From DATKZS01 sp035527835 [NCBI: bacterium] (lineage in GTDB: Bacteria > RBG-13-61-14), in assembly GCA_035527835.1 (NCBI GenBank), contig DATKZS010000077.1, positions 1 through 23,211 on the forward strand: 23,211 nt of DNA, given 5' to 3'. A program made the translations under genes and the position numbers. Positions 18,090 through 23,211 of the stretch are shown here, piece by piece; within the stretch, counting starts at the first letter, position 1; each line of letters begins with the position of its first letter. Under the pieces are notes generated by a model that was not told where the DNA came from, made no database searches, and was given only the letters and a program-made list of their open reading frames with translations.

Positions 18090-18118
18090 AATATAGCTTT
18101 TTACGGGGGAGCAGGCAA
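18090..18118 (-). promoter_or_regulatory. Promoter for the RND/acyl-CoA dehydrogenase operon
   Basis: On the minus strand TTGCCT (18118-18113) is followed after 17 bases by TATATT (18095-18090). Transcription would start about 3-5 bases before the ATG at 18080, leaving little or no leader. The -35 region touches the T-tail of the tRNA terminator. Confidence 0.5.
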
Positions 18119-18123
18119 TAGAA

Positions 18124-18149
18124 AAGGGGGCCGATTAAGCGGCCCCCTT
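18124..18149 (-). terminator. Rho-independent terminator of the tRNA-Sec gene
   Basis: A perfect 10-bp stem (AAGGGGGCCG/CGGCCCCCTT) with a 6-base loop lies 9 bases beyond the tRNA CCA. On the minus strand it is followed by TTTTCTATT. Confidence 0.85.
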
Positions 18150-18157
18150 GCAATGAT

Positions 18158-18253
18158 TGGCGGCAAGAGCAGGAATCGAACCTGCCACGAGCAGTGTTAT
18201 CTGCCCGCATCCGGGTTTGAAGCCCGGTAAGCCCACCAGAGCTTATCCTTGCC
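18158..18253 (-). tRNA. selC: tRNA-Sec (anticodon UCA), selenocysteine tRNA
   Basis: A 96-base tRNA gene read on the minus strand, with encoded CCA. The anticodon loop CTTCAAA is closed by CCGGG/CCCGG, giving anticodon UCA, which reads UGA. The D arm is AAGCTC/GGGCTT with the 4-base loop TGGT, the long stem and short loop typical of tRNA-Sec. The long variable arm pairs about 8 bp (GCGGGCAG/CTGCTCGT). The T arm is GCAGG-TTCGATT-CCTGC. The acceptor GGCAAGG pairs with TCTTGCC, which appears to be 7 bp against 8 bp in E. coli. No other sel gene or selenoprotein is visible here. An integrase gene ends 20 bases upstream of its 5' end. selC is a known integration site for islands. Confidence 0.93.
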
Positions 18254-18273
18254 TCTGATTTATTATCAATGAG

Positions 18274-19377
18274 TTATAGACCGCCTTCCGGGTCCGCCGA
18301 TTTCTCTCCATTGTTTTCTCCATTACTTTCCCGGCCCATGTCCAGGTCCGCGACAACCGCCTTGAGGTCTTGCCAGTCAACCTTGTCATAGCGCCGGAGC
18401 ATGGAGTCCGTCTTGTGGCCGACAACCTTCATGATCGAGCGGTCTTGCTTCCCGGCCCGCCGCGCCGCTGTAACGAAGCAATGACGCCAGTCGTGCCAAG
18501 TGAAGCCCTCGATCCCGGCCTTCCGGCATGTCGCCCTGTGGTAGTAGTCGGCAAGGAAGCGGGTAATCGGCTTCCCGTCCGGCCGGATGAAAACCGGGCC
18601 TATGGCCGCGCTCGCTCCGCGCTGAAAAAAGAGGAGCGCCTTTTTCGCGTCTTGGTTCAGGGGCACGCGCCGCGTTTCCTTGTTCTTGGCATGACCGCCC
18701 AGGATTTTAATGACGCCGCCGAAAAGATCAACATCGGCCCAGGTCAAGGTCAAGAGTTCTCCCTTCCGCGCCCCGGTGTTACAGGTAAGGACCGCAAGGG
18801 CCGCGAACCAATCAGGAGCGGCCTTCATGTAGGCGTCATATTCCGCCGGCGATAACACCCGATCCCGTTCATTGTTCTCTGTCTGCTTCCTGACTTTGGA
18901 GACGGGATTGACCATAAGCTTTCCGTCCCGGATGAAATGATTGAAGGCCGATTTGAGGCAGGTCAGTTCCTTGTTAATCGTGCTCGGAGAGGTAGGCTTT
19001 CCCTTCCACGTGTCGCCCTTGCGCTTCGCCACATAATTTAGAATGTCGGTAGGAGTAACGTCAACCGCCCGCCGATCCCCCAGGGCTTCCTTGATCCGCA
19101 TGACCAGGCCCCGGTCCCGCTCGCATGACCGCTTATGCTTCGCGCTGTAGTCAAGGAAGGCATCGCACATCTTGGAGACAGTCGCATCGGATATGCCGCC
19201 GCCCCAAAGGCCCCGAGCCTGTGCCTGCTTGATCTCGGTTTTCTTCTTCGCAAGCTCCGCCCTGGCCTGGCTCGCCGTGAACGCCAACTTGACGGCTTCC
19301 TGGACTTGCTTTCCTTTCAAGGTGTATTGGATGTACCAGGTCTTGCCCGTCTTGGTTTTCCGCGTGAACACGCCCAT
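18274..19377 (-). CDS. int: Tyrosine recombinase (phage-type integrase)
   Basis: This 367-residue integrase would insert and excise the element to its right. The start at 19377 is preferred because GGGGGCGGGG precedes it; an ATG six codons upstream (19395) overlaps that SD. The N-terminal arm-binding-like region (GKTWYIQYTLKGKQVQEAV) is followed by a core-binding SAM-like domain (about 65-165). The catalytic domain is complete: Arg204 (NTGARKGELL), Lys near 233, His295 and Arg298 (TWHDWRHCF), His321 (VVGHK) and Tyr330 (LRRYDKV). The gene ends 20 bases from the 5' end of tRNA-Sec, co-directional with it. It follows the RHH gene by 25 bases, so the two are probably co-transcribed and controlled by the operator at 19589-19632. 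Confidence 0.95.
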   Translation of the reverse strand: MGVFTRKTKTGKTWYIQYTLKGKQVQEAVKLAFTASQARAELAKKKTEIKQAQARGLWGGGISDATVSKMCDAFLDYSAKHKRSCERDRGLVMRIKEALGDRRAVDVTPTDILNYVAKRKGDTWKGKPTSPSTINKELTCLKSAFNHFIRDGKLMVNPVSKVRKQTENNERDRVLSPAEYDAYMKAAPDWFAALAVLTCNTGARKGELLTLTWADVDLFGGVIKILGGHAKNKETRRVPLNQDAKKALLFFQRGASAAIGPVFIRPDGKPITRFLADYYHRATCRKAGIEGFTWHDWRHCFVTAARRAGKQDRSIMKVVGHKTDSMLRRYDKVDWQDLKAVVADLDMGRESNGENNGEKSADPEGGL

Positions 19378-19402
19378 CACCCCGCCCCCTTTCATGCCGT
19401 TG

Positions 19403-19570
19403 TTACTTGTCGCCGCCTTTCTTCCGGTCCACCGCTTTGACTATAAGCTCCCTGATAAAATCCTGGACGCCCTTGTCCTCTTCGGCGCACTTGATCCTTA
19501 GCTTCTTGTGGGTCTCCGGGTCAAGCCGGACGTGGATCATGCGAAGGTCATCTTTTTTCTTTGGAGTCAT
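19403..19570 (-). CDS. Small ribbon-helix-helix (Arc/CopG-like) regulator
   Basis: A 55-residue protein with a basic N-terminus (MTPKKKDDLR), a beta-strand MIHVRLDPE, helix 1 THKKLRIKCAEED, and helix 2 VQDFIRELIVKAVDR, ending KKGGDK. This is the ribbon-helix-helix pattern of small DNA-binding dimers. The start is supported by GGGAGA about 8 bases upstream. It lies directly upstream of the integrase in the same direction. Tandem 15-16-base repeats in its promoter suggest that it represses itself and the integrase, like other RHH proteins that bind spaced repeats. An excisionase-like role is also possible. Fold assignment is by pattern only. Confidence 0.8.
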   Translation of the reverse strand: MTPKKKDDLRMIHVRLDPETHKKLRIKCAEEDKGVQDFIRELIVKAVDRKKGGDK

Positions 19571-19588
19571 TTTTGCTTCTCCCTGAAT

Positions 19589-19632
19589 GTTACCTTAGTA
19601 AAGACGTTACCACAAGTAAAGGGGCTTGTCAA
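19589..19632 (-). promoter_or_regulatory. Promoter with tandem operators for the RHH-integrase unit
   Basis: On the minus strand a perfect TTGACA (19632-19627) is followed after 17 bases by TAACGT (19609-19604), preceded by an extended -10 TG. Two direct repeats overlap the spacer/-10 and the start region: GTTACCACAAGTAAAG (19606-19621) and GTTACCTTAGTAAAG (19589-19603), 17 bases apart. Binding of the adjacent RHH protein here would block transcription. The remaining gap (19633-19732) holds only a small GC hairpin and no gene. Confidence 0.65.
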
Positions 19633-19732
19633 GAAAAATCTCCGGCCTCAATCTGTGCGGGTCCAGGGACCGGGCGGGTGATGGAACACCCGGCCCCCGG
19701 AGCACCGCGAGCGGCCGGGGCAGGCCGCCCCC

Positions 19733-19939
19733 TTAGCGCGCTGGGCGAGAGCGCGCACCTAAAAATCCTTGCACAACATCCTGGACCACGGCGTCAACTG
19801 TGGTCCCCCGGCTCACCGCCATTTCCTCGATCCGGCCCGCGAATTTTCCCGGCAAGGTTACGTTCAAGAGGCAGTCGCCGCCCGGAAGCTCCCGGACCAT
19901 AGTGCTCGGTTGCCGGCTCTTTTCCATCTTGTTCACCAT
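19733..19939 (-). CDS. Second RHH-like small protein, nested start
   Basis: A 68-residue protein with a short basic N-terminus (MVNKMEKSRQ), a strand CLLNVTLPGKF, then two helices (AGRIEEMAVSRG and VDAVVQDVVQGFL), again resembling an RHH fold. GGAGGG with an 8-base spacer precedes the ATG at 19939. Its first 146 bases lie inside the preceding ORF in another frame. Its composition looks more protein-like in this overlap than the other frame does. It is the last gene of the leftward TerL operon before the RHH-int promoter. It could be a regulator or an antitoxin-like protein; no toxin partner is recognised. Confidence 0.65.
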   Translation of the reverse strand: MVNKMEKSRQPSTMVRELPGGDCLLNVTLPGKFAGRIEEMAVSRGTTVDAVVQDVVQGFLGARSRPAR

Positions 19940-20105
19940 GACCGCATCCCTCCGCTTCGAGGATGGAGCATTGGACGATTTCAGAGATTAAGCTCGCCCT
20001 GGACAGGTTCATCCGCCGCGCCAGAGGCCGAAGCTCCCGCATGAGGTCTTTCCCGATCACAACCGGGATTCTCCGCCCGGTATGGCGCTGGACCTTGCCG
20101 GGCAC
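19794..20105 (-). CDS. RHH-like small protein with overlapping, low-complexity C-terminus
   Basis: A 103-residue ORF starting with GTG (20105) after a GAAGGGGTGA site. The first 52 residues look like an RHH domain (RRIPVVIGKDLMREL, then LARRMNLSRASLISEIVQCS). After about residue 53 the sequence turns Gly/Glu/Pro/Arg-rich, and this part overlaps the start of the next gene in another frame. The third frame has a TGA right at that gene's start codon. A one-base frameshift that removed the native stop is therefore a good explanation, leaving an original protein of about 55-58 residues. It starts 4 bases after the stop of the gene upstream. Confidence 0.55.
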   Translation of the reverse strand: MPGKVQRHTGRRIPVVIGKDLMRELRPLARRMNLSRASLISEIVQCSILEAEGCGHGEQDGKEPATEHYGPGASGRRLPLERNLAGKIRGPDRGNGGEPGDHS

Positions 20106-20109
20106 GGCT

Positions 20110-20379
20110 TCACCCCTTCAAAATTTTCTCGATTCGGGCGAGCAAGTCATCCTCGATTTTGCCATGAAGCAAGGACAAAATTTTCTCCGCGCTGCTCATC
20201 TTCGCCCATGCCGCCGCCGCTTCCCGCTCTTTGCGTGCCTCATCCCGGAGAACGCGGTCTGCGGTTTCCTTGCCCAGCGCGAGCTGAAGCCGAAGCCGGC
20301 GCGGGTCTTTTTCCCGCAACTCATCAAGCTCGCTCGTGTCAATTTTGCTGTCCGTACTTTGGTCGCTTAGCTGGATCAT
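20110..20379 (-). CDS. Small charged phage/element protein, unknown
   Basis: An 89-residue hydrophilic protein rich in Glu, Lys, Arg and Ala, mostly helical (LDELREKDPRRLRLQLALGK, then DRVLRDEARKEREAAAAWAK). It has no recognised motif. The start at 20379 is chosen since GGGAGG lies 8 bases upstream. Alternative GTG and ATG codons at 20388 and 20385 overlap that SD and the stop of the gene before. A scaffold-like, coiled-coil or regulator role is possible, but none can be supported. It lies in a tightly packed operon downstream of TerL. Confidence 0.65.
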   Translation of the reverse strand: MIQLSDQSTDSKIDTSELDELREKDPRRLRLQLALGKETADRVLRDEARKEREAAAAWAKMSSAEKILSLLHGKIEDDLLARIEKILKG

Positions 20380-20384
20380 GGTCA

Positions 20385-20786
20385 TCACCTCCCTTCATCC
20401 TGGCCCGCCATGACGGGCGATAATTTTTTTTTCGCCGCTTGCACTTTGAGCCGCGTCTTGCACTTGAGGCAGGTCTCGCGGTAGGTCTCGAAAAACTCCC
20501 GCGAAGCCGCCTCCCATGCCTCTACCTCTTGAATCATCCCGAGTGTGCTGGCGACGTGGCACTTGATGTAGTCGCTGACCTGGCCCGCCGAGCCGCAGAA
20601 AACCAGATCGAGGGTGTTTTTGTAAACCTGTTGCAGGGCGACGCCAACCGAGGCGACTTTGAGCCAGTCGGCCGCCGTGAGGCCCATCGCATCGCCCGTG
20701 GCCTGGTCGTAGATTTCGCCGGGTTTGATGCGGAAGGACACGATGTCGGCCCGCGTCCGTTCGACAACTTTTTCTCTTGGTTCCAT
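20385..20786 (-). CDS. Unknown element protein, 133 aa
   Basis: A 133-residue protein starting at ATG 20786 after a strong AGGAGGT. The N-terminus is VERTRADIVSFRIKPGEIYD. A mildly hydrophobic helix follows (LTAADWLKVASVGVALQQV), then a long helical stretch and a CLKCKTRLK pair near residue 107. The two cysteines alone do not make a complete zinc site; Cys64 and Cys76 elsewhere might contribute. The C-terminus is Lys-rich. No family is recognised. Its position two genes after TerL, where a portal is usually expected, is noteworthy because it is far too small to be one. Confidence 0.7.
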   Translation of the reverse strand: MEPREKVVERTRADIVSFRIKPGEIYDQATGDAMGLTAADWLKVASVGVALQQVYKNTLDLVFCGSAGQVSDYIKCHVASTLGMIQEVEAWEAASREFFETYRETCLKCKTRLKVQAAKKKLSPVMAGQDEGR

Positions 20787-20803
20787 CTTCGTTACCTCCT
20801 GAT

Positions 20804-21259
20804 TCAGTTCGGGATGAACGGATTATTTTCCGGGAGGGTGAGGTCCGGGCCGGGGTCCGGGGTCTTCACCGGGTCCACCTTGATCTGCCCGTCCCGAATC
20901 CGTTTCAGTTCCGCCGCCGCCCGGAGTTCGTCATCACTTGTTGAAATGAACGGATTGACGGTCGGGTCTTCGAGCTCCTCCATGTCCACTTTTTCCTTCG
21001 CCATTGTTCCCTCCTCTTTGTCTTTGATGCGGAGCCGCAATCGCTCCGCGCTTTCCAAGCCGCTCTCTAACATATACGACGTGGTGAAAATCGAATCCAC
21101 GGACTCGCCCCGGTCCACCATGCCCTCAAGAATGTCTTGCGGCATGGACAAAAACGACTTGACGATGTTCGGGTTGCCCTCGCTGTCAAGCATTGCCGCA
21201 ATGTCGCCGCGCACCATCTTTCCCCGATACGCTGTCCTGTAACTTTTCTGATTCACCAT
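20804..21259 (-). CDS. Unknown element protein after TerL, 151 aa
   Basis: A 151-residue hydrophilic protein starting at ATG 21259 with a strong GAGGAGGTGA. The N-terminal half (MVNQKSYRTAYRGKMVRGDI onwards) looks folded. The second half is acidic and contains two related short motifs, NPFIS (near 102) and NNPFIPN (the extreme C-terminus). These resemble peptide tags that dock onto a partner protein, but this is inference. It lies 12 bases after TerL and 17 bases before the next gene. No family is recognised. An internal ATG with an SD-like GGAGG (near 21004) could give a shorter product. Confidence 0.7.
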   Translation of the reverse strand: MVNQKSYRTAYRGKMVRGDIAAMLDSEGNPNIVKSFLSMPQDILEGMVDRGESVDSIFTTSYMLESGLESAERLRLRIKDKEEGTMAKEKVDMEELEDPTVNPFISTSDDELRAAAELKRIRDGQIKVDPVKTPDPGPDLTLPENNPFIPN

Positions 21260-21271
21260 TGGCTCACCTCC

Positions 21272-22900
21272 TCAAAGTCTCTCATCGTCAAGAATGATGC
21301 GCGGGTCCGTGATGTTCACCCGCTCTTTTCGGGGTTGACAATTCATCCCCATCTTCACCGCGCTCCACGGAATATCTTTTTTATGCAAGCCGTGATACGC
21401 CAGCGCCAGCGAGCACACCGCGTCATCATGCAGGCCGGACGGCGCTGAAAAACGGGTGTTGCCGCTGGGCAGGATGTCATACGAAAATGCTTCAAGCTCT
21501 CGGGTCAAAACCGGGATGCGGGCCAGCGTGATCCGCCTTTGTTCAACCGCAATGGTGAGGTCCGCAATCAGGTCTTGCTTGCTCTTGGACGTGAACGTAA
21601 AGCCCCGGACCTTCAGCTCCATCTCTTTCAGCGATTCGGTAACAGGTTGCCCCATGCCGGTTTCATCCGCGATAATTTCAGCGTCATGATACTTGTCCGC
21701 AATGGCCTTCACCCGCGCCCGTTGCCGCCCCCACTCCTGCCCGGTCCAGCGGTCGAAATAGCAGAGCCGCCCATGCGAGTCCATGACGGTCGCAACCGTA
21801 AAATCGCCGTATCTTCCCAGGTCAAGCCCCATGAAATACCGCATCCCCGCAACCGGGGCCATGACCTCAACCGGCATGACGCTCTCCGGGATGGACGGCC
21901 CATCCAGCACGCCCGCCAAGTTCCGAAAAACTGTCCCGCCGTCTTGCAAAAATACCGCTTCGATTTCTTGCTTGAAGGCGTCATGCGGCAAGCTCCGCCG
22001 AAGCGCCCCGATTTCAGAGTCTATAATCCCGCCGGGATAAACATGGACGTTGCCCCAGCTCGGAAAGCTCCAGCTCTCCACGTCCGGGCAGTCCGCATCT
22101 TGACCTTCCAAAAAGAGCCGATAGAACCAACTGCCCCGGCCCCGTGGTGTTGAAATGAGCCAAGCCGTGCCCCGCGTGTCGCTCAATGACGGCCGCAAAA
22201 TTTTGGTCCATGCCTCCTCCGGTAGCAGGCCGGCTTCATCGCAGACAAGCAGGTCAATGCCCTGGCCGCGAAGGTGGTCCACGTCATCGCCACTCTTGAC
22301 CTCAAGGACCGCATTGTTATTTAGCGTCATGGTCAACTTGCTATGGCTCACCCGCCGGACGATAGGCGCGGGCAGGGAAGCGCACAGGTTATGAAACACC
22401 CGCTCTCCTTGACTGAAAATCGGGACCACAAGCCAGCATGTCGCCCCCGGATGCGTGAGGCCGTGCCAGCGCATCACGTTCATTGCGAGCCGGGACTTGC
22501 CCCATCGCCTGCCTGTGCAAAGGCACTTGAACCTTGCCGCGCTCGAGAGCACCTTAACCTGGCCGCTGTGAGGAATGAAAGGGACAAGGCCGGGGACCGC
22601 GAGCATGGGCGAGTCGGCAGGCACAAGGCGCTGCCCGGGCCGGGGCAATCTGGACGCGAGCACCGCCTTCAAGAACATGCCAGCATCGGCCGGGAGCGCC
22701 GCCAACACGGACGCCAAGCCAGCATCCCGAATAGCGCGGGCAAGGGCATTGTCCTCACCCCGGCCGATTTCGCCGGCCAGCTCCATCAACCGGCGCTTGG
22801 ATTCCCGCCCCGTCATGGCCTGCTCGCCCGCCCGGTCCCCTTCAAGAATCCCCTTGACGCGCTCTCCGAGTCGCGCCAGCGCCCCTTGTGTCAACTGCAT
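21272..22900 (-). CDS. Phage terminase large subunit (TerL)
   Basis: This 542-residue DNA-packaging motor has an ATPase domain with Walker A CTGRRWGKSRL (128-138), Walker B IDLLVCDE (215-222), the catalytic Glu222, and a motif III-like WLISTPRGRGSW (248-258). The C-terminal RNase H-like nuclease has MGLDLGRYGDFTV (357-369, Asp360), IIADETGMG (409-417, Asp412/Glu413) and LHDDAVCSLALA (490-501, Asp492/493). All key residues are present, so it appears functional. About 110 N-terminal residues precede the motor and are helical, longer than in many TerL proteins. The SD is moderate (AGGGGG). Downstream are only small genes and the integrase, with no portal or capsid gene. Confidence 0.95.
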   Translation of the reverse strand: MQLTQGALARLGERVKGILEGDRAGEQAMTGRESKRRLMELAGEIGRGEDNALARAIRDAGLASVLAALPADAGMFLKAVLASRLPRPGQRLVPADSPMLAVPGLVPFIPHSGQVKVLSSAARFKCLCTGRRWGKSRLAMNVMRWHGLTHPGATCWLVVPIFSQGERVFHNLCASLPAPIVRRVSHSKLTMTLNNNAVLEVKSGDDVDHLRGQGIDLLVCDEAGLLPEEAWTKILRPSLSDTRGTAWLISTPRGRGSWFYRLFLEGQDADCPDVESWSFPSWGNVHVYPGGIIDSEIGALRRSLPHDAFKQEIEAVFLQDGGTVFRNLAGVLDGPSIPESVMPVEVMAPVAGMRYFMGLDLGRYGDFTVATVMDSHGRLCYFDRWTGQEWGRQRARVKAIADKYHDAEIIADETGMGQPVTESLKEMELKVRGFTFTSKSKQDLIADLTIAVEQRRITLARIPVLTRELEAFSYDILPSGNTRFSAPSGLHDDAVCSLALAYHGLHKKDIPWSAVKMGMNCQPRKERVNITDPRIILDDERL

Positions 22901-23112
22901 GACGGCTCGCCCCCTTCACCCTGGCCCCCGGTTGGACGGGGACGGGGCGGAATCTCCCTTTTTGCCGGGATTGCCGCCGTATCAGGCCGCGCCAGAGGCC
23001 CCAGAACGGGCGCAACCGGGGAAGGTGGGGCTACACCATTGCCCCGCGTTCCCGTCTCGGAAAAGTGGCCCCTAGGAGCCTGTCGGAGTATAGGCTCCGA
23101 TGATTGATACAT
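22891..23112 (-). CDS. Possible truncated Pro-rich protein upstream of TerL
   Basis: A 73-residue ORF overlaps the TerL start by 10 bases. It is rich in Pro, Gly and Arg (APPSPVAPVLGPLARP, EIPPRPRPTGGQGEGG), like a disordered C-terminal tail. The beginning runs through the hairpin at 23075-23098 and has no good SD. It may be the remaining 3' end of a longer element gene, cut by insertion or rearrangement near 23060-23100, or it may not be a gene at all. Confidence 0.3.
   Translation of the reverse strand: MYQSSEPILRQAPRGHFSETGTRGNGVAPPSPVAPVLGPLARPDTAAIPAKREIPPRPRPTGGQGEGGEPSCS
23075..23098. repeat. Inverted repeat, possible element end or leader hairpin
   Basis: GGAGCCT (23075-23081) and AGGCTCC (23092-23098) flank a 10-base loop. 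It sits at an abrupt change from GC-rich to AT-rich sequence, which could be the edge of an inserted element, or the 5' hairpin of a transcript started from 23104-23131. Confidence 0.4.
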
Positions 23113-23140
23113 TATGATCTATCATGGTCAACATTATGAT
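23104..23140 (-). promoter_or_regulatory. Possible leftward promoter with direct-repeat operators
   Basis: On the minus strand TTGACC (23131-23126) is followed after 16 bases by TATCAA (23109-23104). A perfect 10-base direct repeat (plus strand ACATTATGAT at 23109-23118 and 23131-23140, starts 22 bases apart, two helical turns) abuts both boxes. It could control the TerL operon with a leader of about 195 bases. Confidence 0.35.
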
Positions 23141-23211
23141 TTCCCCTTTGCGACTTCAGAACAAAGGGCGGAGATGAATGTGTCCGCGCTCATTTTCAGG
23201 CGAAAAAGGGG
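23141..23211. other. Right edge: gene-free AT-rich/hairpin sequence
   Basis: No gene is supported. The stretch contains CCCTTTG and CAAAGGG as an inverted pair (about 23145-23169) and an imperfect palindrome CGGAGATGAATGTGTCCG. This is compatible with the end of an insertion sequence or another repeat, but it is cut by the window. Confidence 0.3.

What the first reader, a model, noticed from the sequence alone, without database searches (positions are those of the whole stretch)
18274..22900. Compact TerL-small genes-RHH-integrase module with no portal or capsid
An apparently intact TerL is followed by five small genes, then an RHH gene and the integrase, all in one direction. Usually a portal and capsid operon follows TerL. 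This could be a satellite or packaging-interference element that uses its own terminase on a helper's capsid, or a deletion remnant. The small genes have strong SDs and tight spacing, which argues against random decay.
Basis: partly seen in the sequence, partly recalled or inferred. Interest (0 to 1): 0.62.

Follow-up and report, generated by a model that had tools for sequence, protein, structure and literature searches.

The report
Cut-off phage element beside selenocysteine tRNA
This is the integrase end of an integrated phage-like element sitting beside the selenocysteine tRNA gene, with an intact DNA-packaging motor gene; it looks as if it lacks capsid genes mainly because the sequence stops 311 bases past that gene, so it is most likely ordinary.

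Summary
The genes are real: an intact large terminase (TerL), five small genes, a ribbon-helix-helix gene and a complete tyrosine integrase, all on the minus strand, with foreign base composition. The integrase stops 19-20 bases from a tRNA-Sec gene. "No portal or capsid" cannot be claimed: the window ends 311 bp upstream of TerL and shows no second att copy, so the element runs off the right edge. Unusual is that no portal follows TerL: of 92 sampled viral TerL relatives with at least 5 kb downstream, 88 have a large same-strand ORF within 4.5 kb. In 3 of the 4 exceptions TerL ends its strand run in larger phage contigs, so the order does not prove a satellite. Of 15 integrase-relative loci, 4 could be bounded: tRNA islands of 6.5-8.5 kb, and one of 29.6 kb with BREX genes; no TerL match was found in them. 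In two, the duplicated att core is the tRNA 5' half, the geometry seen here. Best reading: the integrase end of a temperate phage, intact or decayed, cut by the end of the sequence. A satellite with its own TerL is not excluded. A side finding, a TerL-portal pair kept beside gltX, may be more interesting.

The parts
21272..22900 (-). TerL, large terminase (542 aa): ATPase plus RNase H-like nuclease domains, motifs intact, about 105-aa N-terminal extension not shared by most relatives aligned
20804..21259 (-). g151, unknown; acidic low-complexity tail with two NPFI motifs; an in-frame internal ATG behind GAGGAGG near 21000 may give a second product
   Evidence: no relatives; motif and internal start read by eye
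20385..20786 (-). g133, unknown, predicted helical (model of low confidence)
20110..20388 (-). g92, unknown, charged
19794..20105 (-). g103, N-terminal RHH-like region (weak), C-terminal half overlaps g68
19733..19939 (-). g68, possible RHH-like protein (reading by eye; PHROG match is to a family of unknown function)
   Evidence: phrog_5333, E 0.0059
19403..19570 (-). rhh55, ribbon-helix-helix regulator
18274..19395 (-). tyrosine integrase (373 aa), catalytic R210, K237, H301, R304, H327, Y336 present
18159..18254 (-). tRNA-Sec, intact; predicted attachment gene, its 5' end facing the integrase
   Evidence: geometry as
23105..23145 (-). candidate promoter/operator upstream of TerL: two ATCATAATGT direct repeats 22 bp apart around a TTGACC
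   Evidence: for the repeats; promoter read by eye, not listed by the scan

Best explanation
The module is the integrase-proximal end of an integrated tailed-phage element, most likely a temperate prophage (intact or decayed), inserted at tRNA-Sec and cut off by the end of the available sequence. The integrase recombines the element's attP with the 5' half of tRNA-Sec (crossover near the anticodon loop), the element restores the 5' half, and the displaced original half lies at the unseen far end. rhh55 sits in front of the integrase and probably regulates that unit. TerL is the last packaging gene before small genes and the lysogeny genes; on induction it would pump DNA into proheads encoded further right, outside the window. 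Shown: genes, intact motifs, position at the tRNA, no att copy in the window. Inferred: att site, regulation, capsid genes to the right, mechanism.
For: TerL and integrase keep their catalytic residues. The integrase stops 19-20 bp from tRNA-Sec. The element exceeds the window: alignment of the tRNA-Sec region with the module stays within the range of 100 shuffles. Two integrase relatives with the same orientation to the tRNA (G441, G162) have att cores made of the tRNA 5' half, 42 and 44 bp. One integrase relative (L281) lies beside CI-like repressor and antirepressor genes, as in prophages. TerL at the end of its strand run with no portal behind it occurs in larger phage contigs: L027 (tail gene upstream), L430 (DNA polymerase upstream), L436 (tail gene on the convergent strand). 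In L349 a distant integrase relative (25%) comes next after TerL, portal, adaptor and minor head genes, with a tape-measure gene upstream, so a lysogeny gene can lie inside a head cluster.
Against: No virion gene except TerL is seen. The upstream 311 bp hold no TerS-like gene, whereas most relatives list a small same-strand ORF just before TerL. 88 of 92 relatives have a large same-strand ORF within 4.5 kb downstream; in the window none other than the integrase starts before the tRNA. Only 1 of 200 viral TerL loci has an integrase hit at all, and it lies upstream. The four bounded integrase-relative elements are islands without a TerL match.
Confidence: 0.6

Rival explanations
1. A phage satellite or island that keeps its own TerL, perhaps with a fused N-terminal recognition domain in place of TerS, and packages itself into a helper's proheads.
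For: Integrase relatives sit in islands of 6.5 kb (G441), 7.3 kb (G458) and 8.5 kb (G325); G441 and G325 hold HTH_17 proteins and primase-like genes, G458 was not annotated. TerL has an extra helical N-terminal region of moderate confidence and no TerS-like gene in the 311 bp seen upstream. Repeats upstream suggest TerL may have its own regulated promoter.
Against: No primase, HTH_17 excisionase or other island hallmark is seen in the window. The window's TerL found no match in any of the 15 integrase-relative loci (a divergent TerL could be missed). No satellite with TerL but without capsid genes appears in the titles, abstract starts and passages seen; PICMI and tycheposon papers were not opened.
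Confidence: 0.15
2. A deletion remnant: a decayed prophage of which TerL, small genes and the integrase survive.
For: Portal missing from its usual place; that integrase and TerL can outlive other genes is general knowledge, not tested here.
Against: All ORFs are open, mostly with good RBSs and coding-like codon positions. The TerL branch is long (0.83 against a median tip of 0.37) but the placement is weak and this does not show decay.
Confidence: 0.2
3. A non-phage island or gene-transfer-agent-like locus that uses TerL for another purpose.
For: TerL relatives of about 38% identity stand with a portal gene beside gltX in a bacterial class.
Against: Those loci keep the portal, and none of their ORFs printed was recognised as an integrase; the window has an integrase at a tRNA and no portal.
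Confidence: 0.05

Closest known systems
Tailed phages with terminase of PHROG family 2 / Terminase_6 type (sequence relatives: Tunturi_4, Thermus phage P23-45 group, Halorubrum phage Hardycor1)
   Same: TerL domain order and motifs; 28.5-33.5% identity over 72-81% of the query
   Different: In the four annotated records looked at that name a portal, it follows TerL directly or one gene later; here small genes and the integrase follow
tRNA-targeted islands with related tyrosine integrases (G325, G441, G458, G162)
   Same: Integrase 31-34% identical over the alignment; integrase next to a tRNA; in G441 and G162 the att core is the tRNA 5' half
   Different: G325 and G441 carry HTH_17 and primase-like genes, G162 carries BREX genes; no match to the window's TerL
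PICI and capsid-forming PICI satellites
   Same: Integrase near one end, possible packaging gene
   Different: By passages seen in PMC6092414 and PMC10690885, PICIs may carry terS, and cf-PICIs carry both terminase subunits plus portal, capsid and protease; TerL alone fits neither

Membership tests
Tyrosine-integrase element integrated at a tRNA gene | Integrase with complete catalytic residues next to a tRNA gene | tested here: met
Tyrosine-integrase element integrated at a tRNA gene | Displaced tRNA fragment at the far end | tested here: inconclusive
   not within the window; the far end lies outside
Temperate tailed phage (prophage) | Large terminase with both enzymatic domains | tested here: met
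Temperate tailed phage (prophage) | Portal, major capsid and tail genes | not testable with these tools
   sequence ends 311 bp upstream of TerL; no larger genome is held
Phage satellite (PICI) | Absence of structural and lytic genes over the whole element | not testable with these tools
   far end not in the window
Phage satellite (PICI) | Excisionase/alpA and primase module | tested here: inconclusive
   none among the genes seen; element incomplete
Capsid-forming PICI | TerS, TerL, portal, capsid and protease together | tested here: inconclusive
   only TerL present in the part seen

The most novel reading that the evidence does not exclude
A compact integrating satellite that brings its own large terminase, with a fused helical N-terminal domain standing in for TerS and its own regulated promoter, but no portal or capsid, so that it replaces only the packaging motor on a helper's proheads.
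Probability: 0.13. Interest if true: 0.7.

Novelty: new member of a known kind. Interest (0 to 1): 0.22.

Why it matters
As it stands it is an uncommon gene order in an otherwise familiar kind of element, at a tRNA-Sec site. It shows that absence of capsid genes cannot be read from the edge of a sequence. It makes one clean prediction: a 5' fragment of tRNA-Sec at the far end. If the satellite reading were right, it would add a packaging strategy (own motor, borrowed capsid) to those in the satellite papers seen here.

Tried and rejected
Exact-peptide searches for close relatives found none: TerL in genome contigs and viral contigs, integrase in viral contigs, g133 and g151 in viral contigs. 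tblastn of g133, g151 and g92 against 50,697 phage records gave no match at E up to 1. PADLOC and NCBIfam gave nothing useful for the small genes. The g133 model has mean pLDDT 44.9 and was not used. TerL found nothing at E up to 1e-40 in the 3 genomes of G001's class. The idea of a short element whose second att site lies inside the window was rejected: the best direct alignment scored 10 and the best inverted one 13, with shuffled maxima of 14 and 15. The idea that a missing portal behind TerL proves a satellite was rejected by L027, L430 and L436. Weak matches treated as chance: g133 in L220 (E 0.066) and integrase in L229 (E 0.46); g103 in L247 (E 0.025) and L251 (0.11), g92 in L247 (0.89), g151 in L250-L252 (0.63-0.99); g151 in L270 (0.075). 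A pattern scan for a repeat in front of rhh55 found one copy only, so an operator there is not claimed. The promoter scan listed 3 sites (mean 1.1 in shuffles) and the terminator scan 2 (mean 5.7), none of them upstream of TerL or between integrase and tRNA.
Full report
Observation. On the minus strand from 22900 to 18274 the window holds TerL (542 aa), ORFs of 151, 133, 92, 103 and 68 aa, a 55-aa RHH-like protein and a 373-aa tyrosine integrase. TerL matches PHROG family 2 (E 1.3e-39), Pfam Terminase_6C (3.8e-8) and solved terminase chains (E about 1e-18 to 6e-18; Thermus phage P74-26 and G20c by the titles). Residues of the ATPase and nuclease sites are conserved in alignments with phage relatives (the naming of the motifs is recalled). 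The AlphaFold model (mean pLDDT 77.9) matches T4 gp17, D6E, P74-26, Sf6 and HK97 large terminases. The integrase keeps R210, K237, H301, R304, H327 and Y336 (roles recalled). Third-position GC is 0.62-0.75 in the eight module genes and 0.86-0.92 in four host genes, so the module is foreign.

A tRNA-Sec gene lies at 18254-18159 on the same strand (Rfam RF01852 at 18253-18162, 69.2 bits). The integrase stop codon is 19-20 bp from its 5' end. The window ends 311 bp upstream of TerL, and alignment of 18100-18300 with the rest of the module gives nothing outside the range of 100 shuffles. The element therefore runs past the right edge, and a lack of portal and capsid genes cannot be claimed. No whole genome is held for the window.

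How unusual is TerL without a portal behind it? 92 of the 200 have at least 5 kb downstream: 72 have a same-strand ORF of 350 aa or more starting within 2 kb, 16 have one at 2-4.5 kb, and 4 have none. ORF size stands in for a portal; most of these ORFs were not annotated. Of the four exceptions, L027 has TerL at the end of a strand run with a tail protein upstream; L430 has DNA polymerase and a helicase-like gene upstream of TerL and opposite-strand ORFs after it; L436, similar in ORF sizes, has a tail gene on the strand that converges on TerL. L226 was not annotated. So TerL last in its strand run is a minority order in larger phage contigs (29.5-36.7 kb), not a mark of satellites. An HMM of eight integrases found an integrase in 1 of the 200 loci (L194, 916 bp upstream of TerL); very different integrases could be missed. 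None of the window's other genes matched these 200 loci at E up to 0.1; in the earlier set of 143 loci g133 had a match at E 0.066 in L220.

The integrase. In 395 genomes of one phylum (chosen through distant host-gene matches, so not known to be the host's), 14 genomes had integrase relatives at E up to 1e-40, giving 15 loci. 13 of the 15 have a tRNA within 90 bp of the integrase end: 11 in opposite orientation and 2 in the same orientation as here. Far copies of the tRNA part were found in 4: G325 58 bp (8.5 kb element), G458 45 bp (7.3 kb), G441 42 bp (6.5 kb), G162 44 bp (29.6 kb). For the others only the fetched piece was searched. In G441 and G162 the core is the 5' half of the tRNA, starting at or two bases before its first base and ending a few bases past the anticodon, with the integrase stop 9 and 72 bases before the tRNA: the window's geometry. 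G325 and G441 carry HTH_17 proteins and primase-like genes; G162 carries PglZ, PglX and BrxL of BREX; G458 was not annotated. L281 (G008), not bounded, has CI-like repressor and antirepressor genes near the integrase, as a prophage would. None of the 15 loci gave a match to the window's TerL at E up to 0.1. Integrase relatives from viral contigs were more distant (the two best 29-30% identical); among those 80 loci only L349 also matched TerL. In the Islander database 159 islands leave a 5' fragment against 3760 with a 3' fragment (passage in PMC4383910), so 5'-half use is uncommon but known.

A head cluster can hold a lysogeny gene: in L349 the order is tape measure, other ORFs, a 180-aa gene in the TerS position (no PHROG match), a TerL in two overlapping ORFs, portal, adaptor, minor head, then about 0.5 kb later the integrase. 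With such a layout the remaining capsid genes would lie at the opposite end of the prophage.

Mechanism, marked. Shown: a packaging ATPase-nuclease gene with intact motifs and an integrase with intact motifs, next to tRNA-Sec. Supported by relatives: integration by the 5' half of the tRNA. Inferred: rhh55 controls the rhh55-integrase unit; TerL is transcribed from a promoter near 23140-23105, where ATCATAATGT occurs twice 22 bp apart; TerL packages DNA into proheads made by genes further right. The 105-aa N-terminal extension is absent from most aligned relatives (a few have longer N-termini of uncertain start) and is modelled as five helices with block-mean pLDDT of 51-76 over its first 90 residues; it might replace a TerS, which is a guess.

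Verdict. Most likely the integrase end of an ordinary temperate phage element cut by the end of the sequence (0.6). A remnant (0.2), a satellite with its own TerL (0.15) and a non-phage use (0.05) remain. On the papers: I saw passages of PMC4383910, PMC6092414, PMC11389934 and PMC10690885 and search listings with abstract starts for the rest (one search returned none). No satellite with TerL but no capsid genes appears in what I saw; PICMI, VEIME and tycheposon papers, named in PMC11389934, were not opened, so this is a limited search.

Side finding. The best TerL relatives among 395 bacterial genomes (38-39%; 11 genomes had any match at E up to 1e-20) are in a small class: all 4 genomes held of it have one. 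In the 3 with long contigs (L247-L249) TerL is followed by a portal-like gene (SPP1_portal PF05133, E 1.4e-7 in G016, the one tested; the others 63-70% identical to it) next to a gene that I read as gltX (by recall), with different genes on the other side. A 67- or 83-aa ORF lies between TerL and portal in L247, L248 and L252; in L249 only an opposite-strand ORF was listed. The fourth, L252, is a contig end. Amino-acid identity is 58.4-63.8% for TerL, 62.7-69.7% for portal and 65.5-66.8% for gltX, with pN 0.19-0.28 against pS 0.59-0.75 for TerL and portal (pS is near saturation). This suggests a vertically kept packaging pair, possibly part of a gene transfer agent. HK97-type capsid was found in 1 of the 3 class members tested, the capsid-like protein of the G171 locus in 0 of 4, and PhageMin_Tail in 1 of 4, so no conserved capsid partner was found.

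Noticed in passing
L247, L248, L249, L252 (G016, G169, G203, G231): All 4 genomes held of one bacterial class carry a TerL relative; in the 3 with long contigs TerL and a portal-like gene stand beside gltX with no capsid genes recognised among the ORFs read nearby, diverging like gltX under purifying selection: a candidate domesticated packaging motor or dispersed gene transfer agent.
   Followed up: partly
L269/L285/L286 (G162, 29.6 kb): A tRNA-Leu island with a related integrase and 44-bp att copies carries BREX genes (PglZ, PglX, BrxL).
   Followed up: partly
L271 (G441) and L268 (G325): Very small islands of 6.5 and 8.5 kb with HTH_17, primase-like genes and integrase, bounded by copies of tRNA halves; G441 also has a 162-aa protein of PHROG 418, labelled internal virion protein.
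   Followed up: partly
L349 4881-6340: TerL is encoded in two overlapping ORFs, one for the ATPase and one for the nuclease domain.
   Followed up: no
L430, L436: TerL ends its strand run (behind DNA polymerase in L430), with opposite-strand genes, in L436 including a distal tail protein, converging on it.
   Followed up: partly
window 18254-18159: The tRNA-Sec acceptor stem seems short (about 7 pairs by eye; gaps against the Rfam consensus).
   Followed up: no
window 21000 (inside g151): Strong internal SD and in-frame ATG could give a C-terminal product of about 65 aa with two NPFI motifs (by eye).
   Followed up: no
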